Source: Spirosoma luteum DSM 19990 (lineage in GTDB: Bacteria; Bacteroidota; Bacteroidia; Cytophagales; Spirosomataceae). From it: DNA of 64,000 bases. The notes beneath the pieces were generated by a model. The model made no database searches. It was not told the origin of the DNA and was given only the letters and a program-made list of their open reading frames with translations. Within the stretch, counting starts at the first letter, position 1. The number at the start of each line of letters is the position of its first letter. Of the stretch, positions 11,169 to 26,722 are shown piece by piece. The stretch lies in the NCBI RefSeq assembly GCF_000374065.1, contig NZ_KB893245.1, positions 62,001 through 126,000 of the forward strand. The letters run 5' to 3'. A program made the position numbers and the translations under genes.

Positions 11169-11240
11169 GGTCCCGTAGTTCAACGGATAGAATAAGCGTT
11201 TCCTAAACGCTTGATATGGGTTCGATTCCCGTCGGGACTA
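11169..11240 (+). tRNA. tRNA-Arg (anticodon CCT)
   Basis: The sequence folds as a full cloverleaf. The acceptor stem pairs GGTCCCG with CGGGACT, with one G-U closing pair. The D arm is GTTC/GAAT. The anticodon stem is AGCGT/ACGCT with loop TTCCTAA, giving anticodon CCT at 11202-11204. The T arm is ATGGG/CCCGT with loop TTCGATT. It decodes AGG arginine codons. CCA is not encoded. Its 3' end is the left attachment site of the integrated element; the gene remains intact after insertion. Confidence 0.93.
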
Positions 11241-11241
11241 C
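11227..11241 (+). repeat. attL core, 15-bp direct repeat
   Basis: The core TCCCGTCGGGACTAC covers the 3' side of the T arm, the acceptor strand and the discriminator of tRNA-Arg. The same 15 bases recur at 26708-26722. Insertion into the tRNA 3' end with regeneration of the gene is usual for tyrosine recombinases. Confidence 0.85.
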
Positions 11242-11245
11242 ATGT

Positions 11246-11291
11246 AAATAAGGTTAAATATCTGTAAATAAGATAGTTAACCTTATTTTTT
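11246..11291 (+). terminator. Element-encoded terminator after tRNA-Arg
   Basis: An AT-rich 12-bp stem (AAATAAGGTTAA with TTAACCTTATTT) is followed by further T residues. It lies just inside the left end of the element and would end transcription coming from the tRNA. The chromosome's own terminator now sits beyond the right end (26724-26758). Confidence 0.65.
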
Positions 11292-11296
11292 ATTGC

Positions 11297-11319
11297 TTTG
11301 TTGACTGCTTTGTTGACGG
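11297..11319 (+). repeat. Left arm repeats, candidate integrase sites
   Basis: Two direct copies, TTTGTTGACTG (11297-11307) and TTTGTTGACGG (11309-11319), are spaced 12 bp apart. The same motif with the same 12-bp spacing and orientation recurs near the right end at 26568-26590. Sharing by both ends and nearness to the att core suggest arm-type binding sites for the integrase or excisionase. Confidence 0.6.
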
Positions 11320-11331
11320 ATTAGTATAATT

Positions 11332-11940
11332 TCACCTGAAATTGTCTTGAAAGTATTCGTCAAAACTTTTTGGTGTCCGTCCTTTAGATATATCATACGC
11401 TCGTTCTAATATCAGAGCTTTTCTCATTTTTGGGGTTGGTTTACCCCGATAATGCTTCTTAGCATATCGCTTATACACTTGATCATAAACACCATCTAAT
11501 TTGAGTTCTGGGCCGAACGTCTTATCTATCCATCGGTAATGTTTGGAATGAGTTTGACTTTCATACAAAGTACCTGTATGGGCTTTACGAGATGCAAAGT
11601 ATTTGTCGGTCAGGTACAATGTCCGGCAACGTTCGCCAGTTAGCGGACAGACAAAGTACCAGACCTTTCCCTTACCTAAGTTACTTGGTATCTGCACCAA
11701 ATCGACCCGGTAGTTTATTTGCTCAGTCTTGTTGAATGTATAGTGCAACTCAATATAACCGCCTTCTCCAAACAGGTTAACTGCTATATCAACTGTACCC
11801 GTTGTCTCTCCTCTACGGGTCCAATTTATCGAACCAGAACAACGGGCTTGATTAATCATAAAACCAAGCCTTTTTAGGTCGGCCAAAGTCAATTTCTTTA
11901 GTTCATCATATTTATAGGAAAAATCTGAAATTCTGCCCAT
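11332..11940 (-). CDS. Hypothetical protein with degenerate zinc-ribbon-like segment
   Basis: This 202-residue protein is not firmly recognised. The central part (WYFVCPLTGERCRTLYLTD, then a segment ending GTLYESQTHSKHYR) resembles a common prophage-associated family whose usual form has two CxxC-type pairs and a C-R-H-C-x-G-L-x-Y-x-S-Q block. Here most of those cysteines are missing (CPLTGERC keeps two; SRKAHTGTLYES has none), so metal binding may be lost. It is the leftmost gene of the element, in AT-rich DNA, a usual place for cargo. The function is unknown. Confidence 0.6.
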   Translation of the reverse strand: MGRISDFSYKYDELKKLTLADLKRLGFMINQARCSGSINWTRRGETTGTVDIAVNLFGEGGYIELHYTFNKTEQINYRVDLVQIPSNLGKGKVWYFVCPLTGERCRTLYLTDKYFASRKAHTGTLYESQTHSKHYRWIDKTFGPELKLDGVYDQVYKRYAKKHYRGKPTPKMRKALILERAYDISKGRTPKSFDEYFQDNFR

Positions 11941-12013
11941 AATAAAAGTATAGAAAATAGTTTATTGATATACAAATTAGGTGCAAATTGAAATAGTATT
12001 TAAAGATTAGTAA

Positions 12014-13069
12014 TTATTTGCTATCAATTTGTATTTCTTCATTTAATATTTTTCTGAATCTGATTAGAAAATACAGCAGATTCAGTATTAATATAATTGA
12101 GGAAATACTCGCTAATTTTAGTACTAATATATCTTCGAGTTTAAATGATGTTAGAAGCAAGGGAAGTAGAACTCCCGAAATAATAGTCAAAAGTAAAATA
12201 GTCAGAGAGAAATCTAAGTAATTCGGTAAACCAAGTGTATTATAATAAGTTAATTTATATAATCTAGGAATGATATATCCGTCAAATTCGCTTCCTATTT
12301 CTCCAAGAAGAACTCTGTCAAATTGTTTTTCGCCATATTTCTTTGGATTTATTTTCTTACAAAGTTGAAGTATTGCTTCTTTGTCATTATGGCTAATAGC
12401 TGCGAACTTAAAACAGTCTGCATATTCTGCCCATTTATAATCTAGATGCGTCCAAAGCACATTAGCACAATTAGTGACTGTCCATTTTTCTAGTATTTCT
12501 AATGGATAGATATAATTATGATCGTAGCTATCATATAACTCAGACTGCCAATGATTTCGACTGCCTTCAAGTAAGCTTTTTATTCCAAGATATAGACCTG
12601 CTCCACAAATTTGAGTTTCCTGAAAATATGCCTGTTTTAATTCTTCAATGTTTTCCTCATATTCATAATACTGTAACTTGATAACAAAGTAATCTAATTT
12701 CTTATACTTGTTATCAAGTTTCATCTTCATTACGCTGTTCCAGAACTCGTGTGAGTTTTTTAGTGTAAGTGCTATTCTTCTGAAATCCGTCAACTTATTT
12801 GAAAGCTCTGTTATTTCCTTAAGTCTTTCAAGTCTTTCTTGTCTAATCTGAATAACTTTTGAAACAATAAAGGTTATAAGTATAGCAGAAAAAATTGCAG
12901 AAAACTGAATTATGTTATTAAGGAGTTGATTAGCTTCTTCCCTCTTGTTTAGGGGATGGGTTTCAAACAATTTCCATAGAATAGAGAACGCTATTATCAA
13001 TATAAAAACTATTCTTTTATCGCTTGTCTTCCAGAATCGATTAAATGAATTTGAAAATTGTTGAACCAT
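12014..13069 (-). CDS. Membrane protein of unknown function, element cargo
   Basis: This 351-residue protein has two hydrophobic helices near the N-terminus (about residues 20-36 and 52-70) and two near the C-terminus (about 284-305 and 318-340). They enclose a charged, helix-rich central domain of about 200 residues. I recognise no domain. The coding sequence is strongly AT-rich compared with the neighbouring R-M genes, which points to separate acquisition. Its place next to a restriction gene at the cargo end of the element makes a defence role (for instance an abortive-infection membrane effector) conceivable, but nothing in the sequence shows it. Confidence 0.6.
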   Translation of the reverse strand: MVQQFSNSFNRFWKTSDKRIVFILIIAFSILWKLFETHPLNKREEANQLLNNIIQFSAIFSAILITFIVSKVIQIRQERLERLKEITELSNKLTDFRRIALTLKNSHEFWNSVMKMKLDNKYKKLDYFVIKLQYYEYEENIEELKQAYFQETQICGAGLYLGIKSLLEGSRNHWQSELYDSYDHNYIYPLEILEKWTVTNCANVLWTHLDYKWAEYADCFKFAAISHNDKEAILQLCKKINPKKYGEKQFDRVLLGEIGSEFDGYIIPRLYKLTYYNTLGLPNYLDFSLTILLLTIISGVLLPLLLTSFKLEDILVLKLASISSIILILNLLYFLIRFRKILNEEIQIDSK

Positions 13070-13152
13070 GTTATAAACTTCAACGATTTGTGTATTGATA
13101 ATTAAAAATATGGCCCTATTCTTAAACCTACATTCTTAGAGAAGATGAGGTT

Positions 13153-15819
13153 TTAATCTTCTCTATCTGCTTTGGCAACTAGCCCTTTTAAACTATCAAC
13201 GTGCCAAAATTGAACGCCGTTGCTTTCAAACTCGGCAAAGTGAGCCTTACCACAATCTATCTTCAGTTTTTCAATTTCCCGTAGTAATTGCGTGTCCAAT
13301 GTTGATTTGGTTTCAGCTACGAAGTAGATACGCTGGCTACCTTCAAACAATACAGCCCAATCGGGTACGTAGTTGCCTATTGGTGTGGGAATTTTAAAAC
13401 CCCTCGGTAGTTTGAAATAGAATTTTACGTTTTCGTCGGCTTCACATTCGCGGGCAAATCTGGTTTCAACGTCACTATCAATGGGTACATAGTTGAATAG
13501 TGTTTTCTGCTCTCTGCTAACTTTGAATAAATTGCTGAGGTATGTTTCTATCTCTTCATCCTGAAACAGTTGCATAGCGTATTCCTGACCCTGTATTTGC
13601 TCATACTTAATGCCGTTGACCATTAGTCGGTTTAGTGTTCGCTGAATACAGGATACCACGTTATCCAAGAATTGCTGAGGATTGTTTGTAATCTCAGCCA
13701 ACCGCTCTGAACCTTTCAGTATTTCAAAGATGGTTTGTCTTGTTAGGTCAACTTTACCCTGAATGTAAGCGTAAACGTCTGGTACGGGCTGAGCATTAGG
13801 CCGAATCTTTTCCTGCTTACGACCCATCAACTGAGTAGTCAAACCCCGTCCCTCTTCCATGCTTACTAAAGCCGTTTCAGAAACGATCTGAGGTCTAACC
13901 GTTGGCGGCATTTTGCGTACCTCTTCAATAGCTCGTTTGGTTAGTTCGCTAGTGTCGTATGAAACCCGGTAACGGGTCCGGTTCTTGATCTTATCCCATA
14001 ACTCAAAAAATTCCGGGTAGTTGTCCGGTATCAGTTGTTTGCTGAGTTTGATTTGGGCCTTTTCGTTGGCATTTCTGATCTTGCCTTTGAATGATTCGCC
14101 TGTATCCTCCTCAATCTCTTTTTGTAGGGTATTAGCAAAATCCTGGTACGTTTCGTTTGCGATGACGGTCAAAACGTTAATAGTCTTATCCTGAACCCTT
14201 GCGCCCTCACTGTCAACACAGAGCCGCAAACCCCTGCCTATTTCCTGCCGTTTTTTGAGTTCAGACCGACTTTCGTTCAGGGTACAAATCTGAAACACGT
14301 TCGGGTTATCCCATCCTTCCCGTAAGGCACTATGCGAAAAGATAAAGCGTAACGGCTCCTCACTACTTAACAGCCGTTCTTTATCCTTCATTATCAGGTT
14401 ATATGTATCATCGTCGGCTTTAGTGGCTCCGTTCGTGTCCTTTGCCCGGCCTTTATCAGTTGAAAAGTACCCGTTATGTACGTCGGACACGTTGAACGGA
14501 ATAACGCCCTGGTTAATTGGCCGGGCCGCTATCTCCATATAGAGTTCTTCAAACCAGTTGGCAAACTTACCAGGTAAGATGTTACCCCCGGTATCGTAGC
14601 CCCGGTAGTTGGCTACCCGGTCAATGAAGAACAGAGACAGTACTTTAATGCCCTTTTTGGATAACCGGCGTTCTTTCTCAAAATGTCGTTCGATGGTCCG
14701 CTTTACCATGAACTTTAGTACATCGTCGTTTAGTCCCCCTTGCGATTGGCCAACGTTAAGAACCAACCCGTTTGAAAACTCTAAACAATCCTCAGCAGCA
14801 TTGATGCTATTGATTATAAAGCCATCCTGATACATAGCCCGGCCATTGGATAGGGCGAACAGATCAGAGCCAACCTCAGCCGCTACGGTCTTTGGTTTTG
14901 CGCCTGTAGCATCGTTAACGTAGATTGTTAGTTTGGCCTTAATATTCCGCTTTGCGGCCTGTATGCTGTCCAACTGGATAAAGGCCGAATTATAATCCCG
15001 CTCAGCCTGTATGCCATCTATTTCAATCTGTTTAACTAAGCCCAACTCATACGCCTTTACGGGCGAAAGTCGGTAAATCAGATTATAATAATTCTTGTGC
15101 GTGGCCGAATACCGTAGGGTTTTCATTGGGTTTAAATCGGCAATCGCTTTAACCCGAACCGCTGTTTCCATGTTTTGCGGTTCGTCAATAATCACAATAG
15201 GGTTAGTACTGGTAACATATTCGATTGGCCGAATACCCGTTTCCCGCAACTGATTGATAACATTATCGTCGCGAGTGAAGCTGTCGATATTTAGAACCAG
15301 AATTTGCAGACTGTTGGCCGTTGCAAAACTCCGCAAGGCTGACAGTTTTTTGCTGTCATAAACGGAGTAATCTAAAGCCGGGTTATTGTACAGGTTTTGA
15401 AAATGCTGTTGAGTAATGGTCAGGTTCTTTAGTGTTCCTTCCCGTATGGCCACACTCGGAACTACAATAACAAACTTTTTGAAGCCATACCGCTGGTTAA
15501 GTTCATAGATGGTCCGTAAGTAGGTGTAGGTCTTGCCCGTTCCGGTTTCCATTTCAACTGTAAAGTGTCGACCATACCAATCGTTACCGTTTGCTAACTG
15601 GTTGCTGTCCTGAACAGCTTTGAGGTTGATTTGCAGTTGATCGTCGGTTAAAATCAGGTTGTTGGCTACTCCGTTTTGAGTAAGGATTAAGCCGCTTCCA
15701 AAGTCAGAAAACGTCACTTCAAAGTCGCTTTGGTGTAAAGGTTGGCCCTGAAACAGACTGACAACGGAATTGATAGCCGTTCGCTGGTACTGCTGATTGC
15801 TGTCAAACTGTAATCTCAT
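13153..15819 (-). CDS. res: Type III restriction enzyme, Res subunit
   Basis: The 888-residue protein has a helicase core followed by a nuclease. Motifs in order are Walker A ETGTGKT (residues 91-97), motif II DEPQ (212-215), motif III SAT (238-240), the segment REGWDNPNVFQICTL and motif VI QEIGRGLRLC. Near the C-terminus is PDWAVLF followed by FVAETK, a PD-(D/E)xK nuclease site. DEPQ and this arrangement are typical of type III Res proteins, which translocate or switch on DNA with Mod and cut near the recognition site. Its partner mod is on the same strand at 17245-19194, but two plus-strand genes lie between them, so res needs its own promoter, which is visible at 15879-15886. Confidence 0.92.
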   Translation of the reverse strand: MRLQFDSNQQYQRTAINSVVSLFQGQPLHQSDFEVTFSDFGSGLILTQNGVANNLILTDDQLQINLKAVQDSNQLANGNDWYGRHFTVEMETGTGKTYTYLRTIYELNQRYGFKKFVIVVPSVAIREGTLKNLTITQQHFQNLYNNPALDYSVYDSKKLSALRSFATANSLQILVLNIDSFTRDDNVINQLRETGIRPIEYVTSTNPIVIIDEPQNMETAVRVKAIADLNPMKTLRYSATHKNYYNLIYRLSPVKAYELGLVKQIEIDGIQAERDYNSAFIQLDSIQAAKRNIKAKLTIYVNDATGAKPKTVAAEVGSDLFALSNGRAMYQDGFIINSINAAEDCLEFSNGLVLNVGQSQGGLNDDVLKFMVKRTIERHFEKERRLSKKGIKVLSLFFIDRVANYRGYDTGGNILPGKFANWFEELYMEIAARPINQGVIPFNVSDVHNGYFSTDKGRAKDTNGATKADDDTYNLIMKDKERLLSSEEPLRFIFSHSALREGWDNPNVFQICTLNESRSELKKRQEIGRGLRLCVDSEGARVQDKTINVLTVIANETYQDFANTLQKEIEEDTGESFKGKIRNANEKAQIKLSKQLIPDNYPEFFELWDKIKNRTRYRVSYDTSELTKRAIEEVRKMPPTVRPQIVSETALVSMEEGRGLTTQLMGRKQEKIRPNAQPVPDVYAYIQGKVDLTRQTIFEILKGSERLAEITNNPQQFLDNVVSCIQRTLNRLMVNGIKYEQIQGQEYAMQLFQDEEIETYLSNLFKVSREQKTLFNYVPIDSDVETRFARECEADENVKFYFKLPRGFKIPTPIGNYVPDWAVLFEGSQRIYFVAETKSTLDTQLLREIEKLKIDCGKAHFAEFESNGVQFWHVDSLKGLVAKADRED

Positions 15820-15961: not shown

Positions 15962-15981
15962 CCTAAAACTGGTAAGTTTTA

Positions 15982-16965
15982 ATGCTCGAAGCACTTAAAG
16001 ACATCGCATTTAGGTTTCAGATCGACCCAACCGCTACTGTTGGACACGCGGCCCGTATATCCTCTGTTATCAGTGTATTACAGGCTTTTAACCAATCTTA
16101 TCTGAGTTTCCTAGAAGTTGAATTTTTCAAAAACGAAGCTTTTGAAAAAGCTTACCAGACAAATCCCAAAGTTTTAGATTCACTTAAAGCTGACCTTGAA
16201 TTGCTGATTGTTGATCTGAAATTCGGTAGCTTTGAAGCAGCCGCAGCCCCCAACCTACTTGATGCAACATTATTTAATGAATCCGTAAACGGTTGGAAAA
16301 AGAAGACATTTCAAGACTATAAAGAAGACGTTTTGTATGCCAACTACTTTGATATAGCTTATGTACGTCGAACGGTTGACCGTTTTACGGATGAAGAAAG
16401 GTCTAAAATCTACAAACCGCTTTTTGCCGTAGTTGGTCCTGATCGACCTTATCGGGTAAACATTCTTGACAAGCAAGGGAAAACTCGTAAAGTGCTATCT
16501 CAGCCTAAAGGATATACAGATTTCTATGTTCCTAAGTTGGAACGTATTTCTCCCCCAGAAGATGAACTCCATACAGTTCAGTTCGTAGCTCAGGTACGTA
16601 AAAGCGATGATTATGAAAACTATCCACTTAATAAACGTAACATTAAACAAGTGTTGTTCGCTGAACGGTTAGAACACAATACATATCCATTCAAACCAAA
16701 GGTTATTGTGTTTGAGGATACAACCTACATTCTGTCTGAGCCGTTAGTTTGTGAGGTTAATTATGACGATGAAAGCTATATCATCCGTAACGAACGGTTA
16801 GACCTTACCGTTTGGGGGGACAGCCGGGATGAAGCCGAAACAGCTTTTTCGTTTGCTTTCGATTCACTATACCAAAACTTTGCTGAGGAGTCGGATGAAC
16901 TTCTTTCCGACGATGCAAAAAGCCTTAAATCTGATTTGTCTTCGTTAGTAAAGATTAAGAAATGA
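15982..16965 (+). CDS. Hypothetical protein, possible antitoxin partner
   Basis: This 327-residue protein has no named domain that I can identify. Its C-terminus (ERLDLTVWGDSRDEAETAFSF and the following acidic helix) weakly recalls the G-D-(S/T)-x-x-E-A pattern of HicB-type antitoxins, preceded by strands (TTYILSEPLVCEVNYDDESY). Its stop overlaps the start of the next gene in ATGA (16962-16965), so the two are probably translationally coupled. It sits on the opposite strand between type III mod and res, an uncommon place. It could be the antitoxin of a large HicAB-like pair or an R-M accessory protein. Both ideas are inference. Confidence 0.6.
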   Translation: MLEALKDIAFRFQIDPTATVGHAARISSVISVLQAFNQSYLSFLEVEFFKNEAFEKAYQTNPKVLDSLKADLELLIVDLKFGSFEAAAAPNLLDATLFNESVNGWKKKTFQDYKEDVLYANYFDIAYVRRTVDRFTDEERSKIYKPLFAVVGPDRPYRVNILDKQGKTRKVLSQPKGYTDFYVPKLERISPPEDELHTVQFVAQVRKSDDYENYPLNKRNIKQVLFAERLEHNTYPFKPKVIVFEDTTYILSEPLVCEVNYDDESYIIRNERLDLTVWGDSRDEAETAFSFAFDSLYQNFAEESDELLSDDAKSLKSDLSSLVKIKK

Positions 16966-17252
16966 AGCCCCGAAAAACCAAAGATTTACAGCAAGTCCTG
17001 GAAAAGAAAGGCTTTATGCTGAACCCGGCCAAAGATCACCATCAATTCTATTCGTTGTTCATTGACGGTAAAAAGCAGGTTGTTTATACCTACCTCAGTC
17101 ACGGCGGGAAAGAATACGGCAAAACCCTAATGGGTTCAGTGAAAAAGCAGTTGAAATTTACCGACATCCAAAAGGCCGAAGATTTCTTTGATTGCCCTAT
17201 GTCGGCAGAAAAATACGTTGAAATGCTACGGGAAGACGGCCATATCAAATAA
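16962..17252 (+). CDS. HicA-like small protein (putative toxin)
   Basis: This 96-residue protein resembles HicA/YcfA mRNA interferases of the dsRBD-like fold: LQQVLEKKGFMLNPAKDHHQFY corresponds to the usual helix, GF turn and S/D-H-H block, followed by strands and the segment THLSHGGKEYG-like YLSHGGKEYGKTLMGSVKKQ, which parallels the H-x-G-K-E-(L/Y) and I/V-KKQ part of the family. HicA cleaves RNA via a conserved histidine. It is coupled to the upstream gene by an ATGA overlap and its 3' end overlaps the mod stop by 8 bp, tail to tail. It is longer than a canonical HicA (about 60-80 residues), with an acidic helical tail. A non-toxic RNA-binding role is possible. Confidence 0.55.
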   Translation: MKPRKTKDLQQVLEKKGFMLNPAKDHHQFYSLFIDGKKQVVYTYLSHGGKEYGKTLMGSVKKQLKFTDIQKAEDFFDCPMSAEKYVEMLREDGHIK

Positions 17253-19194
17253 CAGCAAATTCAATCCCGGCTTCCCGCAATTGTAAGCGGGTGTTGCTCA
17301 GTAGTTCGTTATCCTGGTTGAATAGTTTATCTAACGTAATAAGACGCTGAGGTTGCCGGGCGGTTAGGGCTTCAATCAGTTCGCGGCTAATGCCCTCTAA
17401 AGCCATGTATGTAGTGCCGTTGTTGACCCGGTACACTGGAACCCCGGCCAACTCTTCCCGCTCGACTGGAACCGTAAGTGAATACCCGGCCTTGAGGAGT
17501 AATTCAGTAAACAGGGCTTCGGTCTGGTAATCGTCCGTTAGGGGATGCTGAAAAACGCCTAACTGTTCCAGAATATCAGCCGGGTTTGATAGGTCCGAAC
17601 GCCAAACTTTAAAATGAGTTTGGGTTAACTTATAAGCCCGAAACCCTAACGGCTCCGATTCTTGAAATTGCAGTTGTCCGTTCTTCTTTTGGGTTTGCTT
17701 CTCAATTACTTTACGGATTCTTGCCCGGCTTATATCCGCAATGGTTCTATACCCGGCTTTATAGGCTTCGGTATCAGAATCAAGTAGTTCAGGTAGTTGA
17801 ACATTTATAAAACGTCTATTGCTTTTATTATCTTCATTAAGTTGTTCTACTGCTTGTGCTGTAGAACCTGAACCCGCAAAAAAATCAAGAATTATATCTT
17901 TATCATCAGTAGCGTATGCTATAAGAGATTTTACAAGTTCAACAGGTTTAGGATTATTAAATAATTTTTGAGAACCGGTAAAAAGTCTTTTAATGTCGTA
18001 AGAGCCTAAACGACCATCCAATACTATAACGCTTCTCAATGTATCTTCAAAATCACTTAGGTATTTCTTTATTTTGATGATTCTGTTCTCATCTTCTCCA
18101 TAAAGGATAATACCAGCAGCATCCATATCTTCGTAAGTAGTTTTAGGGAATCTATAACCATTGGCTGGTTTCCTCATCGGCCGCTTTGTATAAGGGTGGA
18201 AAATGTCAAAATCATAGCCTCCTGGTTTAGGATTATGTACACTTTCCGAACCTGTATAGACTCCGTCTTTGTCTACAAGTTTGTAACGACTTATACTATA
18301 AAATACGCTTTCATTATCCGAAATTAACTCACGTATTCTCTTCTCAATCTCCTTTACAGGAAGGTCTTGACTTTTGCATTTAGTATAAAAATCCTCCAAT
18401 ACTGTCTTTGCATCTGAAACGTTACTTTTCCAAGATTCAGGAAGTAAATTCTTCTGTTTAGCATAAACTAATATGTATTCATGCTCAATATTTATTAATG
18501 TTGGATTGTTATCTGTTACGTTCTTCCAAATAATTTGACCGACAAAGTTTTCAACTCCGAAGATTTCATCCAACATTATTTTCAAGTTGACTTGTTCATT
18601 ATCATCAATCGAAACGAAAATTACTCCGTCATTCCGTAGCAAATTCCTGGATAGATATAGGCGTGGGAACATCATTGAAAGCCAAACGCTGTGGAACTGT
18701 CCGCTTTCCTTAGTGTTCTTTCTCCATAAATCTTGCTTATTCAAAAAGCCCTCTTCGTCAGTAATACCAGTACGTTTTTTGTAAATGTCCTGACGTTCGC
18801 TGTAATCATCGGGGTAAACAAAGCTATCGTTCCCTGTATTATATGGCGGGTCGATATAGATCATTTTTACCTTGCCGTAATAGCTTTTCTGCAGAACGCG
18901 TAGGACTTCTAAGTTTTCTCCCTCAATAAAGACGTTTTCCGACGTATCGAAATTGATACTATTAGCTCGGTCAGGTGTAAGCGTAGCAGTCGTTTGTTTT
19001 TGTATTTCGCGGTGAGCGTCGTACTTCCCGGCCCACGTCAGGCCGTAGTGTTCCTGAGCTGGCGGGGAAACCTGTTCGCCTAAAATAGTTTTTAGGGCAT
19101 CGAAATCAATTTTATCTTCTCGGAAAACTTCGGGGAAAAGTTGCCGTAGCTGGCTGAGTTTGTCTTGGGCAATGTTGAGCGAAAGACCGTCCAT
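17245..19194 (-). CDS. mod: Type III DNA methyltransferase, Mod subunit
   Basis: The 649-residue protein is a beta-class adenine methyltransferase. Motif IV DPPYNTGND starts at residue 115, and motif I LDFFAGSGSTAQAV follows near residue 435. This order (IV before I) with a variable target-recognition region between them (about 170-400) defines the beta class and type III Mod. It methylates one adenine in an asymmetric site and gives the Res complex its specificity. The recognition region is AT-rich relative to the ends of the gene, consistent with exchange of specificity domains. The 3' end overlaps the plus-strand HicA-like gene by 8 bp. No simple-sequence tract suggestive of phase variation is visible. 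Confidence 0.92.
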   Translation of the reverse strand: MDGLSLNIAQDKLSQLRQLFPEVFREDKIDFDALKTILGEQVSPPAQEHYGLTWAGKYDAHREIQKQTTATLTPDRANSINFDTSENVFIEGENLEVLRVLQKSYYGKVKMIYIDPPYNTGNDSFVYPDDYSERQDIYKKRTGITDEEGFLNKQDLWRKNTKESGQFHSVWLSMMFPRLYLSRNLLRNDGVIFVSIDDNEQVNLKIMLDEIFGVENFVGQIIWKNVTDNNPTLINIEHEYILVYAKQKNLLPESWKSNVSDAKTVLEDFYTKCKSQDLPVKEIEKRIRELISDNESVFYSISRYKLVDKDGVYTGSESVHNPKPGGYDFDIFHPYTKRPMRKPANGYRFPKTTYEDMDAAGIILYGEDENRIIKIKKYLSDFEDTLRSVIVLDGRLGSYDIKRLFTGSQKLFNNPKPVELVKSLIAYATDDKDIILDFFAGSGSTAQAVEQLNEDNKSNRRFINVQLPELLDSDTEAYKAGYRTIADISRARIRKVIEKQTQKKNGQLQFQESEPLGFRAYKLTQTHFKVWRSDLSNPADILEQLGVFQHPLTDDYQTEALFTELLLKAGYSLTVPVEREELAGVPVYRVNNGTTYMALEGISRELIEALTARQPQRLITLDKLFNQDNELLSNTRLQLREAGIEFAVI

Positions 19195-19625: not shown

Positions 19626-20171
19626 TTAAAAGCGCACTTCCTGACCGTCTGGTAATTTGTAAACTACTACGTTTGCGGTTTGCGGCTTTTGATTATTTAG
19701 AGTGGGCTGGTATCGCATATGTAATTGCAGAATCTTCCAAATCGCGTCTAAAGCGTCATACAGTTCTATTTCAGTGTAAACTGTTTCAACCGGTCCTTCC
19801 TTCGTGTGCCGTATCGTTCGGCGTTGCTTGACCTTTTTCAATACGTGTAAATTTTCCTGAGCGTCGGGCGTGTTGAGGTCAATACGAACGGATTTGGTCA
19901 GCGGGTCCACTACCAAAAAATTAGCAAACGTACCTCTTCCTATAAGACTAAGCCGGTAAGCTGCTTCCTGGGGTGTCATTATCGATTCGGCCAATCGTTG
20001 CTCAATAGCGGCCGCAATGTTAAGTTTTGTTAAGTTCTGTCGGCCAATGATACGGGCGTTCGCGTGAGCGTAACCTGCTACCCTGGCTGCTTTGGTTGCA
20101 TTCAGGCAATCACAAAACACCTCAACAAACTTGCGTTGACGGGCGGTTAAGGGCTGATTAGCTGGTGTCAT
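19626..20171 (-). CDS. Phage-type terminase small subunit
   Basis: The 181-residue protein opens with LTARQRKFVEVFCDCLNATKAARVAGY, the N-terminal helix-turn-helix of the Terminase_2 family (PF03592), followed by helices including the segment AAAIEQRL. TerS proteins recognise the pac or cos site and load the large subunit for DNA packaging. No large terminase, portal or capsid gene is present in the element, so if this protein works it must use a large subunit from elsewhere, as satellites do with a helper phage. It is tightly packed between two DUF5681 genes (22 bp and 5 bp gaps), a probable operon. Confidence 0.8.
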   Translation of the reverse strand: MTPANQPLTARQRKFVEVFCDCLNATKAARVAGYAHANARIIGRQNLTKLNIAAAIEQRLAESIMTPQEAAYRLSLIGRGTFANFLVVDPLTKSVRIDLNTPDAQENLHVLKKVKQRRTIRHTKEGPVETVYTEIELYDALDAIWKILQLHMRYQPTLNNQKPQTANVVVYKLPDGQEVRF

Positions 20172-20176: not shown

Positions 20177-20449
20177 TTATTGTTTACCGTAAGCAGAATC
20201 CATAATAGCCCTGTAAGCGGCCGTATTTCCTTTAATGGCTTTTGCTATAATGGCCAATGTTATTAGGTCTTCTATACTCAATGTCATTCGTTCTCCTGTT
20301 AGCTGATTGTCAGCCTTAGTTGTTATGCCCAAACACTGACGTACCATTTTGGCCTTACCCCGACTTCCCTTAGGCCGTCCATTGGGATTGCCGCTTTCAC
20401 CTTTCTGGAAGCGGGTTTCTATCCCGTCTAAATAAATATCGTCTCGCAT
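20177..20449 (-). CDS. DUF5681 protein, second copy
   Basis: This 90-residue protein has FQKGESGNPNGRPKGSRGKA (about residues 14-33), a near-consensus DUF5681 motif, followed by a short helical region. It shares only this motif with the copy at 19280-19603, so the two are old paralogues or independent arrivals. It lies 5 bp before the terminase small-subunit gene in the same direction, which ties it to packaging, though no activity is established for the family. Confidence 0.7.
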   Translation of the reverse strand: MRDDIYLDGIETRFQKGESGNPNGRPKGSRGKAKMVRQCLGITTKADNQLTGERMTLSIEDLITLAIIAKAIKGNTAAYRAIMDSAYGKQ

Positions 20450-20480: not shown

Positions 20481-21695
20481 TTATTGATTCGATAGCCGGA
20501 AAGGTTGGCCGGTTTTGGGATTCACTAAGTCAAGCTGATTTATCAAATCTTGTAAAACCGGGTTACGCTGGTTCATCCGTTGCAAGGTTTGCTCAGTAAG
20601 CGTTAGCGGCAAGGGTGTAACGGTTCGGATACTGTTTACACTTACGGCCGGACTGCTAAGGGACTGAACCGGAACAGCCACCGGGTTGTAATCCCAAAAC
20701 AGTGGATAACCGGAATCAGTCAACGCCCAACCCGCTAATGGGTCACGATTACGAATCAGGTAATCAGCTAAATCATATCCTTTCTTCCGGTCGGCATCGG
20801 TAGCCCGTTTCTCCAACACGTCCGAAACTGTAAGCCGCTGACCAACAACGGGCCGTAGTTCCTCAACCTTTTGGCTCCACTTATCAAAACCGTTTAAGTC
20901 AGGAAACAGCGTAACAGATCGTCCTGCTACGGGTAGTAGCTTTTCTGTTGATAGATTGCTCAAACTACCACAAGCTAACCAAATGTATTTTGGTAGATAA
21001 ACCGTTGCAAGAATGGCTGTCTTTTCGCTTTCAACAATGGCCACCGGGCGGTTATCGGGCTGGTTCCTCAACTGATGCAACCCAAACAAACATTGGCTTA
21101 ACTCAAACTCAGCTAACCGGCCCTGTTTAGTTAAAACACTATGCACCCAATGAATGTGACTGAAAGGCTGTTTAACCCGCTTCAACGTTAGCGAATTATA
21201 CAGCATAATCTTACCCGTCCTGATATTGCCGCTCTTATCGACCTGCCAAAATACGGTTGCCCCTGGCCAGTGTTTTGACGTACCGATATAGAACCGGCTA
21301 ATTAGGTCGTTTGTAATCTCGGTATCGAATAATCCGTATAGGCCGTTGATAAATTCGTTTTGGTCGTACTGATTCAGACTTTGCCGGAACAGGCTGAACG
21401 GAATATACGACGGTTGCGGAACCGGGCGGGCGGGTTTAGGCGACTGGTAAACCGTTTGGGTTCTCGTGCCTGTTGCATCGTTTACCCATAGTTTGTTATC
21501 CTCAAAATATTGGCGGGGCGTGTAGTGGTAGCCGCAATCAGATTCCCGATTACAGCGGCCTACATGGTCCGGTAATAGTTCGCCCGTTTCCGCATCCAGA
21601 TACCGACTCAGTTGCTTCGGCTTTTCGCAAGCCGGGCAAGTGTAACGGGTATTCATTCCTTTGTAGGGTTGCAGGGTATAGCGGTGCTGGTTCAT
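20481..21695 (-). CDS. DUF6371 zinc-finger/TOPRIM primase-like protein
   Basis: The 404-residue protein starts with a putative zinc site (Cys20, Cys23, Cys48, Cys54: CPAC and CNRESDC). The middle region has the TOPRIM elements VAIVESEKTA, with the catalytic-type glutamate, and SVTLFPDLNGFDKW, with the D-x-N/D acidic block. The layout of zinc finger followed by TOPRIM is that of DnaG-like primases, here in the DUF6371 form found in Bacteroidota mobile elements. It would start replication of the excised element, together with the DUF3987 protein encoded just upstream. A direct demonstration of priming for this family is not known to me. Confidence 0.75.
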   Translation of the reverse strand: MNQHRYTLQPYKGMNTRYTCPACEKPKQLSRYLDAETGELLPDHVGRCNRESDCGYHYTPRQYFEDNKLWVNDATGTRTQTVYQSPKPARPVPQPSYIPFSLFRQSLNQYDQNEFINGLYGLFDTEITNDLISRFYIGTSKHWPGATVFWQVDKSGNIRTGKIMLYNSLTLKRVKQPFSHIHWVHSVLTKQGRLAEFELSQCLFGLHQLRNQPDNRPVAIVESEKTAILATVYLPKYIWLACGSLSNLSTEKLLPVAGRSVTLFPDLNGFDKWSQKVEELRPVVGQRLTVSDVLEKRATDADRKKGYDLADYLIRNRDPLAGWALTDSGYPLFWDYNPVAVPVQSLSSPAVSVNSIRTVTPLPLTLTEQTLQRMNQRNPVLQDLINQLDLVNPKTGQPFRLSNQ

Positions 21696-21752: not shown

Positions 21753-23255
21753 TCATGCGTTTAGCCATTTCCAAATAGTCCCTTTCCTTTTTGCATCGCC
21801 CAATACCTCAGCCGCTATCTCAGCATAGTTTTTACCCTGGCTGTACAATTGCCGGGCCTTTTCTAGCTGTTCAGATTTTGTTGAAAACTTGTTAGTATCC
21901 TGGCTTTTCTTTGGCTTAGGTAGCTGATTGTAAAGCCGCAAAACATGGCGTTTCAACATTTCTACAATTTGCAGAGCGTTATCAAAGTCCAAATCTGAAC
22001 AGATCAATACGTCGGTAATTTCCCCTGTATCAAAGGCTCTGAGCGTGGTAAATAGCATAGTAATACGAAAGGCAATTAGACCCAACCGATTGACGGAACC
22101 GTCTAAATCTTCGCTGACAAACTCGCGTATTTCGTCTTTCCAGTGTTGAAATAGTCGAATAAACCGGCCTTCCTGATCGGGCGTTAACTGAATGGTTAGC
22201 GGCTCCGCAAGGTTTATCAAGTGGTCGTATATTTCGGCAAGTTGTTCGCCTATCTTCCCAAAATGAGCCGGGTAAGCACTCTTACACGAATCGAATACGT
22301 TTTTAAAATTCGGGTTCGGTGTCAGGTTGTAGAACAGGAACCTACTGAATAAACCGTTCTCAGCGGTTGGCATCAGATTTAGTAGTTGGTCGAACGTACT
22401 GCTAAGGACAACCGACATTTCTGGATTTTCAATCTCACAGTATTCTTTGCCGGTTCTTCGGTAGTAGGTTATTGATTCGTGGTGAAACGCTTTTCGTAGT
22501 CCGTCGCTGTAATTGCCATAATCCTGCTTTACAGAATCGGCCAACGTGTCGCCCTCAGTCTCAAAAATGATTCCTCGGCCCTCATTATTATTAAGTAGTT
22601 CAAAGGCTCCAGTCCGGCTGTTATTGGCCGGAATGAAAAGGACCGTTAACGGCGGTTCAGCGGGTTCGGTTGGCTCTTCAACCAGACCTTTTTTATCGGC
22701 TTGAAATGCCTTCAGATCTTTCCTGTACCGGGCAAGGTCTGCTTTGTACTCAGTCAGTACTTGCTGATACTGTTCTTTTTTTCGTCGGTGTACAACAGCC
22801 CCCAACAAGTACGAAAGGCTTAAAGCTCCTTTGCCGGAGCCATACCGGGCTAAGACATAGCAGTACAGATTAGTACTGTAATACCGGGTATCATAGAAAC
22901 CTCGGACGTTGGGTAACAAACCACTAACGACGCCCAATGCACCCACCAAGAAAACTTCTTTCTCGATACGGTCAGTAAGGATTGAACAACCATTTTTTAG
23001 TGTGTCGGGTAAATTGTTAAAAATAGCCTGGGTAAAGTATTCGGTTTCCGGCGTTTCCGTTTCTGTTTGGAAACTACCTTTCGGCGGAACGTCTGAACCT
23101 TCGGGCGGTCGGGGTTCTGCTTCCTGTTGTAAATCTTCAATAGGAATAACCGTTTCGGGCTGGCTGGCTGTCCATGTATTAAAGTCGAACACGGGGCCAA
23201 TATCGGGGGTACCTTTCAGCGTCGTATATTTGCGCTGTGAAGCATCGTTTGTCAT
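21753..23255 (-). CDS. DUF3987 helicase/primase-like protein
   Basis: The 500-residue protein matches the DUF3987 family of mobile-element replication proteins. A P-loop ARYGSGKGA (GSGKG at residues 139-143) is followed by an acidic strand GRGIIFETEGDTL that may serve as Walker B. It continues with SVVLSSTFDQLLNLMP and a segment around GLFSRFLFYNL, both typical of the family. The C-terminal 40 residues (EKARQLYSQGKNYAEIAAEVLG...GTIWKWL) form a resolvase-like helix-turn-helix. A charged coiled-coil-like stretch separates the P-loop and Walker B parts. It probably acts with the TOPRIM protein downstream in replication of the excised element. The N-terminal 60 residues look disordered. Confidence 0.75.
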   Translation of the reverse strand: MTNDASQRKYTTLKGTPDIGPVFDFNTWTASQPETVIPIEDLQQEAEPRPPEGSDVPPKGSFQTETETPETEYFTQAIFNNLPDTLKNGCSILTDRIEKEVFLVGALGVVSGLLPNVRGFYDTRYYSTNLYCYVLARYGSGKGALSLSYLLGAVVHRRKKEQYQQVLTEYKADLARYRKDLKAFQADKKGLVEEPTEPAEPPLTVLFIPANNSRTGAFELLNNNEGRGIIFETEGDTLADSVKQDYGNYSDGLRKAFHHESITYYRRTGKEYCEIENPEMSVVLSSTFDQLLNLMPTAENGLFSRFLFYNLTPNPNFKNVFDSCKSAYPAHFGKIGEQLAEIYDHLINLAEPLTIQLTPDQEGRFIRLFQHWKDEIREFVSEDLDGSVNRLGLIAFRITMLFTTLRAFDTGEITDVLICSDLDFDNALQIVEMLKRHVLRLYNQLPKPKKSQDTNKFSTKSEQLEKARQLYSQGKNYAEIAAEVLGDAKRKGTIWKWLNA

Positions 23256-23284
23256 AGCCTTGCTTTGATTAGAGGTTCTTTCAG

Positions 23285-23314: not shown

Positions 23315-23334
23315 TGCTTTAGGTACGGTCGGGT

Positions 23335-23637
23335 CTAAGCCCGTTGGTACTTTACAGAGTTGATCTCAGTCAAAGCGGCTTCAACATCTTCGGGGCGGTA
23401 TAGCACACGACGGCCTACCCGATAGCCGCGAATAATTCCGCGTCGGGTGTAATCATCCAGCGTAGGTAGACTAATGTTTAACTTCTTGGCCGTCTTCTGA
23501 CGGGTAGATAAGTTCTCAGCGTTGACTGCTGAGGTCGGCGGAGTAGACGGGCGGGCCGTAAAGAATTGCTCCAGTTCTTGCCGGAACAGTTGCCGAACTT
23601 CGGGAATTGATAGTTGGGTGAAAACAACGTTTTCCAT
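23335..23637 (-). CDS. Helix-turn-helix excisionase-like protein
   Basis: In this 100-residue protein, residues about 44-92 form a winged helix-turn-helix of the MerR/HTH_17 type (LSTRQKTAKKLNISLPTL, then TRRGIIRGYRVGRRVLY), with a final helix PEDVEAAL. This form is widespread in Bacteroidota integrative elements, next to replication genes, and is usually called excisionase or AlpA-like. In satellites AlpA-type proteins control integrase and excision. An inverted repeat at 23641-23668 just before its start could be its own operator. Confidence 0.75.
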   Translation of the reverse strand: MENVVFTQLSIPEVRQLFRQELEQFFTARPSTPPTSAVNAENLSTRQKTAKKLNISLPTLDDYTRRGIIRGYRVGRRVLYRPEDVEAALTEINSVKYQRA

Positions 23638-23640
23638 TTG

Positions 23641-23668: not shown

Positions 23669-23727
23669 ACAAATATTTGCTCTTTTTCAGGCTATGGGGG
23701 TACTTTACGGAGTACTCTATATTTTGC

Positions 23728-25278
23728 TTATTGCTTGTTAAGCCTTTCCATTTTAGCCGTTTCTATCTCATTATCAATCATTTTAACGGCTTCGTTTAAT
23801 TGCGCTTTTTTGAAGCGTAGTTTAACTATTTCCAAGTCCTCTATCAAACCTTTATCCTGTTTGAAGTTAGGAACCTGCTTGAATTTCTGATATAAGTCAG
23901 AGTTGTTAACGGTAGTAAGTTCTTTACCAGTCAGCAAGTGAGCAACTTTAGCCGCTTGCGAAACGTCCATGTTCTTTCTTGGTTCGAGTCCGAAGAGTTT
24001 GAGCGTATAGTAAATGAGTAAGACCGTCTGAGAGTTGTTCAGACCGCTAAGTATACCGCTACTGTCGGTTGCCTTCGCTTCAGGTTCTACCGGTATAAAG
24101 TCAAGTAGTCGGTTAGCTATTGAGTTATGCGCCCGTTCGATAGCTTGTTGATGCGTACATTGGCCCGGCGGATGCTGGCAGTTCTTGATATGCTCAGTTA
24201 GTACATATTTTAAACCCTCCGCTATGCGAGATAAGAAAGTGTACGCCTGTTCTTTGCTTAACTCCTTAACCTGATCGTCTATCAGGTTATAGTCACTTTT
24301 TGAAGTGTATCCCCTGGAAAGAGTCCGTATGGTTTTCGTAATAATGGGATCGTATGCGGGCGGTAATGGATTGTTCATAATTGAGTTAGGTAAGGTTCCT
24401 GTATTACTGAGGTATTTCCTTACCTCTTCTAAATATCTCAGATATTGCACAATTTGGCATTGCTCCAACCGAACCAGGGCGAAAGTTAAGCTACTGAAAC
24501 CGTTGAAAATATCAAACGGCTTACCTGAAACCAAGTTTCTAAATTCTTCAACGCCTACTCTTTCGTGAGTTGATATTCCTTTAAGGCCTGACACTGCATC
24601 TATATTTAAATCAGGCCTTTCATACGTTTGCCTAATTCGCTCAATCTCTCGTGCTAGCACTTCTTGTGGGTAGATAGCGAACCTAAGTTGATTGTTTATT
24701 TGTCTTGCCAGATAGTTGTAAGATTTTTTGTAGTATGAGCTGTCCTCATTATAAAAATAGGTTTCGTTCAGATTGTCAACTACGTGAATATTCCATACTT
24801 CCTTTTCTTGCCCATTTTTTGGTAACGTTGAAGCCCTAAACTCTTCGGGTGCATCCTCATACGGAACGTAACTATAAGGACCAGAACCTTCACCGAAGTA
24901 TTTATAGCCATGATACACTCGTTCAACAAAGTTGGGTATCGCGTCAAGTTCTTTTTGCAGAGCGACATATTTTCTTGCTCGGAATTGATTGAAAATCTGT
25001 TCTTTTTCGGAGGAGTATCTTTCGCCCTTCTCTCGGCAACCACTACACCCACAGTATATCGAGAATAGTACCTTCCTGTCTGCTTTGGTTACACATAGGT
25101 AGTAGTTGCGGAACAAGTTGAAACTCTTATCAAATACCTCAATTTGTTCTTCAAAACTCTGTTTTGATAGTACCTCTTGTTTGAATGACTCAATATCAAA
25201 GTCTTTGATCACTTCGGGCCAAAGATTTGATATTTCTTTCGACTCAGTTAGTTCTGTCATATGACTACTAAGCGGCAT
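23728..25278 (-). CDS. Hypothetical element protein downstream of integrase
   Basis: This 516-residue protein is not recognised. It contains a cysteine cluster near residues 75-80 (CGCSGC) and a second one near residue 365 (CQHPPGQC), which might hold metal. The C-terminal quarter is helical (NSQTVLLIYYTLKLFGLEPR, then AAKVAHLLTGK and a charged helix). The gene follows int directly: its ATG at 25278 overlaps the int stop by 11 bp, while an alternative ATG at 25260 would leave a 7-bp gap. Either way it is probably in one transcript with int. Similar large helical proteins lie beside integrases in other Bacteroidota elements, without known roles. Confidence 0.6.
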   Translation of the reverse strand: MPLSSHMTELTESKEISNLWPEVIKDFDIESFKQEVLSKQSFEEQIEVFDKSFNLFRNYYLCVTKADRKVLFSIYCGCSGCREKGERYSSEKEQIFNQFRARKYVALQKELDAIPNFVERVYHGYKYFGEGSGPYSYVPYEDAPEEFRASTLPKNGQEKEVWNIHVVDNLNETYFYNEDSSYYKKSYNYLARQINNQLRFAIYPQEVLAREIERIRQTYERPDLNIDAVSGLKGISTHERVGVEEFRNLVSGKPFDIFNGFSSLTFALVRLEQCQIVQYLRYLEEVRKYLSNTGTLPNSIMNNPLPPAYDPIITKTIRTLSRGYTSKSDYNLIDDQVKELSKEQAYTFLSRIAEGLKYVLTEHIKNCQHPPGQCTHQQAIERAHNSIANRLLDFIPVEPEAKATDSSGILSGLNNSQTVLLIYYTLKLFGLEPRKNMDVSQAAKVAHLLTGKELTTVNNSDLYQKFKQVPNFKQDKGLIEDLEIVKLRFKKAQLNEAVKMIDNEIETAKMERLNKQ

Positions 25279-26533
25279 TAAGGCTTAATTCCTCTCGCTG
25301 TTCCCAGTGTGTTTTAAGTAGCTTGGCGTGTTGCTTAGAATCTACTTTAATGTAGCTGAGAAAGGCTCTTTCAGTTCGGTGGCCTGTTATTGCCCGAATC
25401 GTGATGGTTGGAACGCCCTGCAAATAAAGATTGGTAGCGAAACTACGCCGTTGAGTGTGGGTACTGACCAATTCCCATTTCTCGAAGACCTCAGAAACCC
25501 GCTCATTACCGCGTTTTCGGTTAATGATAACCGGGCTGTTCAATTCTGCGGCCTTAGCGATCTCTTTCAAGTACTCGTTTGCTTTTTGGTTACTAAGCAC
25601 TCTGGGTAATTGCCCTTTGTACTTTTCAATGATTGATTCAACGACGGGGTGAAGAGGTATGTACACATCATCATAGACCTTCTGAGTACGAATCTTGATA
25701 TAGCTATTGCCTTCTTCTTTTACAAAGTGTTCAGAACGTAGTTCCGCTAAATCGGAGTACCGTAAACCAACCCAACAACCTACGACGAACATATCACGTA
25801 CCCTTTCCAGACGTGAGTTTTTGGTTAAGTCGAGTTCATATAGTCGGCTGATCTCTTCTTCGGTTAAATAGATACTGTCCGTATCATCAACTAAGGTTCG
25901 GAATGATTTTTTCTTGAAGGTGAGGTTTTGGTGTAGGTCTTTCTCAGCGGCATCATTCAAAACAACCTTTAATGTCTTGATGTATTTACCCACTGAGTTA
26001 TTAAAGAGACTACAATCAGTAATCAGGTAGTTTGTAAAGTCATGATAGAAGTCTAAATCTATAGTATCAAAATCAACCCGCTTCTTACGGGCTTTCGCAT
26101 AGTTGTTGAGGTGGTTAAGCGTTGTCTGCTTTACTTTCAGTGTATTCAGCTTCTGTACGCTCCTGTTGGTTTCGATATGCTTGGTGAAGAACCCAAGCAA
26201 CGAAATAGCTTCGTTTTTCTCTTTTGGAAACAGAATGGATAAGAGCCTTTCCCGTACCTGTTCAACAGTCGGTCGTTTAATCCCACTTTCAACCAGGCTA
26301 TCAACGGAGTCCTTGCCAGCCCGTTCGATCTCGTCAAACCGGTCGTTGAAAGCTCTGTAATAGGGGAATTGCTTGGTTTCTCTCACTCGCTGGCTATTTG
26401 GATTCCAGTAAAGCGGATGAACTTTCTTTTCGGTTGGGTAGACCAACCGTTGATTATGGAAACGAACAATAAGATGTACTTTTGTTTCCTCGTCTGCGTC
26501 GGGGTCACGCAGAACAAATGATGTGGTTGCCAT
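25268..26533 (-). CDS. int: Tyrosine recombinase/integrase
   Basis: The 421-residue protein has the three-part plan of Bacteroidota phage-like integrases: an N-terminal arm-binding region (about 1-105), a SAM-like core-binding domain (about 108-210) and a catalytic domain. Catalytic residues are visible: Arg258 (GLRYSDL), His359 and Arg362 (HTQRRSFATNL), His385 (GHRTERAF) and the nucleophile Tyr394. It would insert the element at the tRNA-Arg 3' end. It lies 175 bp from the right att core, transcribed away from it. Its probable promoter lies against the arm-like repeats, suggesting self-repression. Confidence 0.93.
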   Translation of the reverse strand: MATTSFVLRDPDADEETKVHLIVRFHNQRLVYPTEKKVHPLYWNPNSQRVRETKQFPYYRAFNDRFDEIERAGKDSVDSLVESGIKRPTVEQVRERLLSILFPKEKNEAISLLGFFTKHIETNRSVQKLNTLKVKQTTLNHLNNYAKARKKRVDFDTIDLDFYHDFTNYLITDCSLFNNSVGKYIKTLKVVLNDAAEKDLHQNLTFKKKSFRTLVDDTDSIYLTEEEISRLYELDLTKNSRLERVRDMFVVGCWVGLRYSDLAELRSEHFVKEEGNSYIKIRTQKVYDDVYIPLHPVVESIIEKYKGQLPRVLSNQKANEYLKEIAKAAELNSPVIINRKRGNERVSEVFEKWELVSTHTQRRSFATNLYLQGVPTITIRAITGHRTERAFLSYIKVDSKQHAKLLKTHWEQREELSLNAA

Positions 26534-26556
26534 ACCTATATTGATTTGAGGTATAA

Positions 26557-26564
26557 CAAATATA
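26557..26564 (-). promoter_or_regulatory. -7 promoter element for int
   Basis: TATATTTG on the minus strand matches TAnnTTTG, 23 bp before the int start at 26533. The region where -33 contacts would fall is occupied by the repeats at 26568-26590. Confidence 0.45.
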
Positions 26565-26567
26565 ATA

Positions 26568-26590
26568 TATGTTGACGGATTTGTTGACGG
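26568..26590 (+). repeat. Right arm repeats, candidate integrase sites
   Basis: TATGTTGACGG (26568-26578) and TTTGTTGACGG (26580-26590) are direct copies 12 bp apart. They share sequence, spacing and orientation with the pair near the left end (11297-11319). They lie between int and attR and abut the int promoter. Confidence 0.6.
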
Positions 26591-26707
26591 TATTTTCTTA
26601 CTTACCTTTGTTTTACTTTGCCTACTTTCCTTGTATTTTTTGCGTAACTACCTGATAGATAGTATTAATGAAGATAGATGGTATAAGGAAAGGAAAAAAG
26701 GTGTTAG

Positions 26708-26722
26708 TCCCGTCGGGACTAC
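26708..26722 (+). repeat. attR core, 15-bp direct repeat
   Basis: TCCCGTCGGGACTAC is identical to the tRNA-Arg 3' end at 11227-11241. Here the flanks extend it into a 17-nt inverted repeat with one central base (TAGTCCCG-T-CGGGACTA, 26705-26721), the sort of symmetry seen in tyrosine-recombinase crossover cores. Confidence 0.85.

What the first reader, a model, noticed from the sequence alone, without database searches (positions are those of the whole stretch)
11227..26722. A tRNA-Arg element with integrase, primase and terminase small subunit but no virion genes: candidate Bacteroidota phage satellite
The sequence shows exact 15-bp att repeats, a complete tyrosine recombinase, an HTH excisionase-like gene, two replication proteins (DUF3987; zinc-finger/TOPRIM) and a TerS flanked by two DUF5681 genes. 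It shows no large terminase, portal, capsid, tail, relaxase or conjugation gene. PICIs and P4-like satellites of other phyla have this content and use TerS to divert a helper phage's packaging. Satellites are little described in Bacteroidota. That this one is mobilised by a phage is inference.
Basis: partly seen in the sequence, partly recalled or inferred. Interest (0 to 1): 0.8.

Follow-up and report, generated by a model that had tools for sequence, protein, structure and literature searches.

The report
Spirosoma island resembling a phage satellite
A 15.5-kb piece of mobile DNA in a Spirosoma bacterium looks like a parasite of bacterial viruses that carries its own antiviral enzymes; distant kin share its chassis but seem to travel in different ways.

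Summary
In detail: 11227-26722 is a discrete element in tRNA-Arg with exact 15-bp att repeats, Int, HTH_17, DUF3987, DUF6371, DUF5681, TerS and a second DUF5681; no TerL, portal, capsid, tail or relaxase was recognised. Four relatives (G208, G198, Fibrisoma, Larkinella) show that TerS is NOT core: intact only here, a pseudogene in one, absent in three. Int, HTH, DUF3987, DUF6371 and the first DUF5681 stay under purifying selection. DUF5681 lies directly upstream of TerL in five phages or prophages (not in every place examined), so it may itself be a small-terminase-type protein. Int-x-HTH_17-DUF3987 with defence cargo is the order of PICMI satellites. But the same chassis carries relaxase in other Bacteroidota, so it does not prove phage transfer. 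Elsewhere it occurs with TerS plus a tape-measure gene and no TerL found, and one circular 8.7-kb metagenome contig holds the chassis with TerS. Best reading: a phage-satellite-like element with defence cargo and an exchangeable transfer module (0.55). Mobilisation by a phage is untested; no shared packaging site was found.

The parts
11169..11241 (+). tRNA-Arg (anticodon cct), attachment gene; its last 15 bases are one att repeat
   Evidence: ARAGORN, Rfam
11227..11241 (+). att repeat, tRNA side (15 bp exact)
   Evidence: the same 15 bp bounds the elements of G208 and G198
11297..11319 (+). repeats TTTGTTGAC (two) inside the tRNA-side end; arm-type integrase sites by inference
   Evidence: similar repeats at both ends in G208 and Fibrisoma, and at the int end (the only end covered) in G198
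11332..11940 (-). c202, conserved end gene of unknown function; AF2 pLDDT 85.6, no fold match
   Evidence: (17 of 80 chassis loci)
12014..13069 (-). 351-aa protein without a convincing family, probably membrane-bound (read from sequence)
13153..15819 (-). Res subunit of type III restriction-modification
   Evidence: PADLOC 8.9e-292; Walker A, DEP and PD..ExK patterns
15982..16965 (+). 327-aa unknown protein, possible partner of the HicA-like gene
   Evidence: no family; overlaps next gene by 4 nt
16962..17252 (+). HicA-like protein (below Pfam cut-off)
   Evidence: PF07927 2.8e-4, 21.4 bits against 27
17245..19194 (-). Mod subunit of type III restriction-modification; middle part replaced relative to G208
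   Evidence: PADLOC 6.6e-176; per-region identity
19280..19603 (-). second DUF5681 protein (107 aa)
   Evidence: PF18932 1.8e-9; 37-39% to DUF5681 next to TerL in two prophages
19626..20171 (-). TerS (Terminase_2)
   Evidence: 6.6e-17; PHROG terminase small subunit; solved TerS hits; nested among prophage TerS
20177..20449 (-). first DUF5681 protein (90 aa), present in 5 of 5 members
   Evidence: PF18932 5e-15; dN/dS 0.10-0.13 in the 3 of 4 pairs that could be computed
20481..21695 (-). DUF6371 with zinc ribbon, replication protein (inferred)
   Evidence: 1.8e-59
21753..23255 (-). DUF3987 protein, primase-type
   Evidence: 9.9e-61; phrog DNA primase 1.4e-6
23335..23637 (-). HTH_17 protein, excisionase/AlpA-like
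   Evidence: PF12728 1.8e-8; phrog excisionase 7.7e-7
23728..25278 (-). x516, gene directly after int (overlaps it by 11 nt); C-terminal part shared at 28-30% with 200-203 aa proteins of three relatives
25268..26533 (-). tyrosine recombinase (integrase)
   Evidence: PF00589 5.5e-10, SAM_5 1.9e-15
26570..26590 (+). matching repeats at the int end
26708..26722 (+). att repeat, int side (15 bp exact)

Best explanation
A phage-satellite-like integrative element. Shown by sequence: it sits between exact att repeats in tRNA-Arg with its own integrase, has an HTH_17 excisionase-like gene and replication-type genes, carries small-terminase-type genes without recognised TerL or virion genes, and brings a type III R-M system. 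Inferred: a helper phage triggers HTH_17; Int with x516 excises the island; DUF3987/DUF6371 replicate it; DUF5681, helped here by a TerS taken from a local phage, hands the DNA to the helper's TerL and prohead; the R-M cargo protects the host against other phages. Relatives have other R-M-like cargo and have lost or never had TerS, so packaging there would rest on DUF5681 or on helper promiscuity.
For: Discrete, mobile unit: same 15-bp att in two other elements of the genus, a 16-bp att in tRNA-Asp of Fibrisoma, and an empty site in G211 whose flank matches. Sizes 15.5, 14.4, 16.2 and 14.9 kb. Core under purifying selection. DUF5681 directly upstream of TerL in 5 phages/prophages: Leptospira LE4, G208 prophage (Pfam for both), G113 prophage (TerL by profile), IMG/VR L316 and L277 (home-made profiles only). 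No relaxase or TerL inside the elements of the six hosts by genome search (PF03237 not run on G195). Three of four PICMI model genes, with defence cargo. Int-HTH-replication elements with TerS and a tape-measure gene but no TerL found recur. A circular chassis+TerS contig, L262. A Terminase_3 TerL in 3 of 6 hosts, the window's included; with Terminase_6N, 4 of 6.
Against: TerS is intact in only 1 of 5 members. The chassis is not diagnostic: 10 of 80 loci carry a relaxase, and phage-like contigs share DUF6371 (TerL in 35 of 82 viral-side loci). DUF5681 is not always next to TerL: of 5 non-element places opened in the order search, 2 had TerL beside it and 3 had none found (G000 C35, G276, G111), and in phage Sf13 the short match lies away from TerL. 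No near relative of TerS or DUF3987 in IMG/VR. No packaging site shared with prophages beyond a DUF5681 coding match. DUF5681 model poor (pLDDT 58.5). The element's DUF5681 proteins lack the C-terminal stretch of the phage ones. In G115 neither TerL family was found.
Confidence: 0.55

Rival explanations
1. A non-autonomous defence island: Int, HTH and replication genes move it at low rate by transformation or generalised transduction; DUF5681 and TerS act as regulators, or as decoys that block an infecting phage's packaging, rather than to package the island.
For: TerS is broken or absent in relatives while R-M-like cargo is present in all five; element DUF5681 proteins lack the phage C-terminal stretch; relatives carry further defence-type families such as Shedu and AAA_21.
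Against: DUF5681a is kept in 5 of 5 at dN/dS 0.10-0.13 directly after the replication genes, and chassis circles occur in metagenomes.
Confidence: 0.2
2. An element mobilised by conjugation in trans: descended from, or parallel to, the chassis elements with MobC and relaxase, now using an oriT read by another element's relaxase.
For: Same chassis with relaxase in 10 and MobC in 9 of 80 loci, several followed by type I R-M-like genes; relaxases elsewhere in 4 of 6 host genomes.
Against: No relaxase inside any of the elements; small-terminase-type genes occupy the position that MobC/relaxase hold in the others.
Confidence: 0.13
3. Remnant of a prophage that lost its virion genes and gained R-M genes.
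For: IMG/VR L316 has DUF6371, DUF5681, TerL, portal in the same order.
Against: Clean ends, conserved core and similar size in four elements at two tRNA sites with no virion gene recognised; purifying selection.
Confidence: 0.07

Closest known systems
PICMI satellites of Vibrionaceae (PMC10803314, passages read)
   Same: int, a gene overlapping or touching int, HTH_17/AlpA, DUF3987 primase, defence genes; no capsid genes
   Different: tRNA site instead of fis; no Fis gene; larger (14-16 kb); has DUF6371 and DUF5681 (and TerS here); other phylum; helper unknown
PICIs/SaPIs (PMC6092414, passages read, part of the abstract among them)
   Same: specific att site, Int, excision-type gene, replication genes, TerS without TerL in the window's member
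   Different: no capsid-size gene recognised; TerS not conserved; induction and packaging untested
PLEs and cf-PICIs with their own tape-measure genes (PMC12987554, passages and a figure legend read)
   Same: kin with a related chassis carry a tape-measure gene, most of those listed with TerS
   Different: the window's element has none; no capsid gene was recognised in those kin by the scans made (only the 25 commonest families were shown)
Mobilisable elements on the same chassis with MobC and relaxase, mostly Bacteroidales (this work; NBU-type comparison recalled)
   Same: Int, HTH, DUF3987, DUF6371 order and, in several, R-M-like cargo
   Different: the MobC/relaxase position holds DUF5681/TerS here

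Membership tests
PICMI (SatelliteFinder model quoted in PMC10803314) | Integrase PF00589 (or two other families) | tested here: met
   5.5e-10
PICMI (SatelliteFinder model quoted in PMC10803314) | AlpA PF05930 or PF12728 | tested here: met
   PF12728 1.8e-8
PICMI (SatelliteFinder model quoted in PMC10803314) | Primase, DUF3987 PF13148 (the model also names DUF5906) | tested here: met
   PF13148 9.9e-61; DUF5906 not seen
PICMI (SatelliteFinder model quoted in PMC10803314) | Fis gene / fis integration site | tested here: not met
   no Fis family among 14 proteins; site is tRNA-Arg
PICI | specific attachment site and own integrase | tested here: met
PICI | small terminase or phage pac/cos for specific packaging | tested here: inconclusive
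   TerS present here, broken or absent in kin; DUF5681 kept; no shared pac/cos found
PICI | phage-dependent induction and packaging in particles | not testable with these tools
   needs experiment
PICI | phage-interference gene | tested here: inconclusive
   type III R-M is defence cargo; no capsid-remodelling family found
Integrative mobilisable element | relaxase or MobC | tested here: not met
   14 proteins; 18 proteins of relatives
Prophage | TerL, portal, capsid | tested here: not met
   TerL

The most novel reading that the evidence does not exclude
One chassis, Int-x-HTH-replication gene-DUF6371, spread across Bacteroidota, is a general 'hitcher' whose transfer module is exchangeable: MobC and relaxase for conjugation, mostly in Bacteroidales; DUF5681 and/or TerS, sometimes with a tape-measure gene, for phage packaging in Spirosoma and its kin. 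The window's element is the packaging version, with DUF5681 as an unrecognised small-terminase family and TerS captured anew from local phages.
Probability: 0.35. Interest if true: 0.8.

Novelty: new variant of a known kind. Interest (0 to 1): 0.6.

Why it matters
In the library searches made (listings, with passages of two of the listed papers read) no described Bacteroidota phage satellite was seen. If the reading is true, a major phylum has satellites that spread restriction-modification genes, DUF5681 gains a function, and a chassis that changes between conjugative and phage transfer can be tested directly.

Tried and rejected
DUF5681 fold: AF2 model too poor to search. c202: good model but nothing at E <= 0.001 in PDB or BFVD, so its function stays open. 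Close relatives of TerS and DUF3987 in IMG/VR: none.

Shared packaging DNA between the element and seven stretches around prophage genes: 102 weak matches, 3 with E below 1, against 76 and 3 for the same stretches reversed; the one clear match (E 1e-5) is in the DUF5681 coding region.

A separate 'satellite TerS' clade: not supported. TerL-less TerS are mixed among phage TerS (11 changes; 86 to 91 of 500 shuffles as low; quick tree). That labelling used a 4-kb rule and a home-made TerL profile; L042 (portal 2 kb away) and L313 (TerL 9 kb away) are probably phages. The broken TerS of G208 was not in the tree.

Left out of the 1-of-5 TerS count: G195, whose 3.6-kb contig ends shortly after DUF6371. 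TerL absence in kin rests on two Pfam families and one profile. Of 16 DUF5681 places in the order search, 4 are in the elements (two of them in the window), 5 more were opened, and 7 were not. Of 305 phage records matching DUF5681 at E <= 1, two contexts were opened.
Full report
What is there. The element runs from the last 15 bases of tRNA-Arg(cct) (11227) to an identical copy ending at 26722. The 15-mer occurs nowhere else in the window; chance expectation is 6e-5. The core genes lie on the minus strand, from int at the right: Int, x516 (starts 11 nt inside int), HTH_17, DUF3987, DUF6371, DUF5681, TerS, second DUF5681. Motifs expected of working Mod and Res are in place (the motifs are recalled). 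None of the 14 proteins matched TerL, portal, capsid, tail or relaxase families in Pfam, nor did the 10 given to PHROGs.

Host and occurrence. G208 and G195 are in the window's genus group, so the window's genome is a Spirosoma in that grouping (inference). DUF6371 above 70% identity occurs in 6 of 222 family genomes, the window's included. Empty site: all 36 genus genomes matched the hflX-tRNA region; of the 30 loci looked at, G211 has the tRNA followed at once by a terminator like that at window 26723 onward.

Near relatives. G208 (L032) and G198 (L092) use the same 15-bp att; Fibrisoma (L094) sits in tRNA-Asp with a 16-bp att. Lengths are 15,496 (window), 14,399, 16,239 and 14,851 bp. Larkinella (L095) has another integrase and a distant DUF3987 but the same DUF6371-DUF5681 pair; its ends were not found. 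dN/dS against the window: Int 0.04-0.08, HTH 0.11-0.16, DUF3987 0.07-0.08, DUF6371 0.07-0.12, DUF5681a 0.10-0.13 (one pair not computable; synonymous sites near saturation in the farther pairs). TerS is intact only in the window; in G208 the same frame holds 9 stops in the aligned part; in G198 the slot holds another gene and a broken piece of the second DUF5681; in Fibrisoma and Larkinella no TerS was found. Cargo differs: type III R-M in the window and G208; genes that read as type I R-M-like in G198, Fibrisoma and Larkinella (names from sequence and from clusters, not from a family search). Pfam on 18 further proteins of the relatives gave Shedu, AAA_21, DUF4365, DUF5655 and cyclase domains and no TerL, portal, capsid or relaxase. 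Between window and G208, Res is 90% identical, Mod 74% or more at both ends but 24-40% over residues 201-450: the target-recognition region seems swapped (inference).

DUF5681. It lies directly upstream of TerL in Leptospira phage LE4 (annotated TerL), in a G208 prophage (L246, both by Pfam), in a G113 prophage (L247, TerL by profile, portal by Pfam), and in IMG/VR contigs L316 and L277 (home-made profiles). That is the usual place of the small terminase (recalled). Against: in G000 contig C35, G276 and G111 no TerL was found beside it, and in phage Sf13 a short match lies elsewhere. The elements' versions (90 and 107 aa) stop where the phage proteins go on (105-158 aa). Whether this means packaging, decoy or regulation cannot be told; the predicted model was unusable.

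Chassis. Pfam confirmed MobC/NikA and relaxase on L220. The gene before DUF6371 varies: DUF3987 in 25 of 80, clusters g3 and g8 or an AAA_25-like gene in others. On the viral side (80 IMG/VR loci, the best of 81, plus 2 fecal records) TerL was found in 35, TerS in 13, DUF5681 in 3, relaxase in 2 of 82: DUF6371 is shared with real phages. Of 26 IMG/VR contigs held whole, 7 have direct terminal repeats of 114-127 bp, a sign of circular molecules. One, L262 (8.8 kb, 8.7 kb without the repeat), has Int, the g3 gene, DUF6371 and TerS; no TerL was found by profile, and the DUF6371 frame crosses the contig ends.

TerS neighbours. TerS relatives occur in 24 of 222 family genomes, the window's included. 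Of the 30 non-own matches, all fetched, 20 lie in a 20-kb stretch with the TerL cluster (cluster named by Pfam on one member). Fifteen TerS were labelled TerL-less, the window's included; nine of them have a tape-measure gene near: seven by profile (the profiles were built from clusters that hold most of these genes, and were named by Pfam on L035, L056 and L057; L033 is below the Pfam cut-off), L037 by PHROG and L177 by Pfam. Not all of these have DUF6371. Pfam TerL searches placed no TerL inside the eight family loci or L177 and L182. TerL-less TerS do not form one group, which fits repeated capture from local phages. PLE11 builds chimeric tails with its own tape measure, and cf-PICIs carry such genes (PMC12987554, passages).

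Against a satellite. TerS is dispensable in kin; relaxase versions of the chassis exist; no near relative was found in IMG/VR; no shared packaging site. Terminase_3 is found in 3 of 6 hosts and Terminase_6N in 3 of the 5 searched, 4 of 6 hosts in all. The window genome's TerL region (contig C35) has only a weak portal match, below its cut-off, and no TMP_3 gene was found in that genome.

Comparison. The PICMI model asks for integrase, AlpA (PF12728 allowed), a DUF3987-type primase and Fis; the window meets three and fails Fis. In PICMI115 the gene overlapping int is needed for excision, and overlaps of 1, 4 or 13 nt occur in the family; x516 overlaps int by 11 nt. Among 53 other Int-x-HTH loci 7 overlap and 39 are within 40 nt, overlaps included (starts chosen by a simple ORF rule). 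So the layout works like a PICMI or PICI, but it is not a member of PICMI, and PICI membership is untested. Literature: searches are search listings; passages were read of PMC11389934, PMC10803314, PMC6092414, PMC10924106, PMC12987554, PMC11364771 and PMC13376191. No Bacteroidota satellite was seen there.

Noticed in passing
L177 and L182 (Xanthocytophaga flavus); L033, L035, L037, L056, L057, L059, L060, L272: Elements with TerS and (except L182) a tape-measure gene but no TerL found; most have Int, HTH and replication genes in the stretch. Possible tail-altering satellites.
   Followed up: partly
L199, L213-L215, L217, L219-L221, L223, L224: Version of the chassis with relaxase (10) and MobC (9 of these) after DUF6371, mostly in Bacteroidales, several followed by type I R-M-like genes.
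   Followed up: partly
L253, L254, L255, L256, L262, L269, L303: IMG/VR contigs with DUF6371 and 114-127-bp direct terminal repeats, probably circular molecules.
   Followed up: partly
G000:C35:273574-274218 (L243, L334) and C35:286283-286519 (L240): TerL (Terminase_3) with a weak portal-like neighbour in the window's own genome, and a further DUF5681 gene near the contig end; possible helper prophage.
   Followed up: partly
window 23728-25278 and the slot between Int and HTH in 53 loci: In these loci a gene of very variable length (162-740 aa) sits between Int and HTH; function unknown.
   Followed up: partly
window 15982-17252: 327-aa gene plus HicA-like gene between Mod and Res on the opposite strand; possible toxin-antitoxin pair.
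   Followed up: no
window 17245-19194 against L032 10366-12336: Middle part of Mod replaced while Res is 90% identical: probable specificity swap.
   Followed up: yes
L034 3446-5086: Stretch beside a TerS-bearing element of a same-genus genome (G200) holds a gene with a delta-endotoxin N-terminal domain (PF03945 1.2e-23); described only.
   Followed up: no
window 48652-62440: Exopolysaccharide-type locus (export, chain-length, flippase and glycosyltransferase-like ORFs, read from sequence) with GC down to 33%.
   Followed up: no
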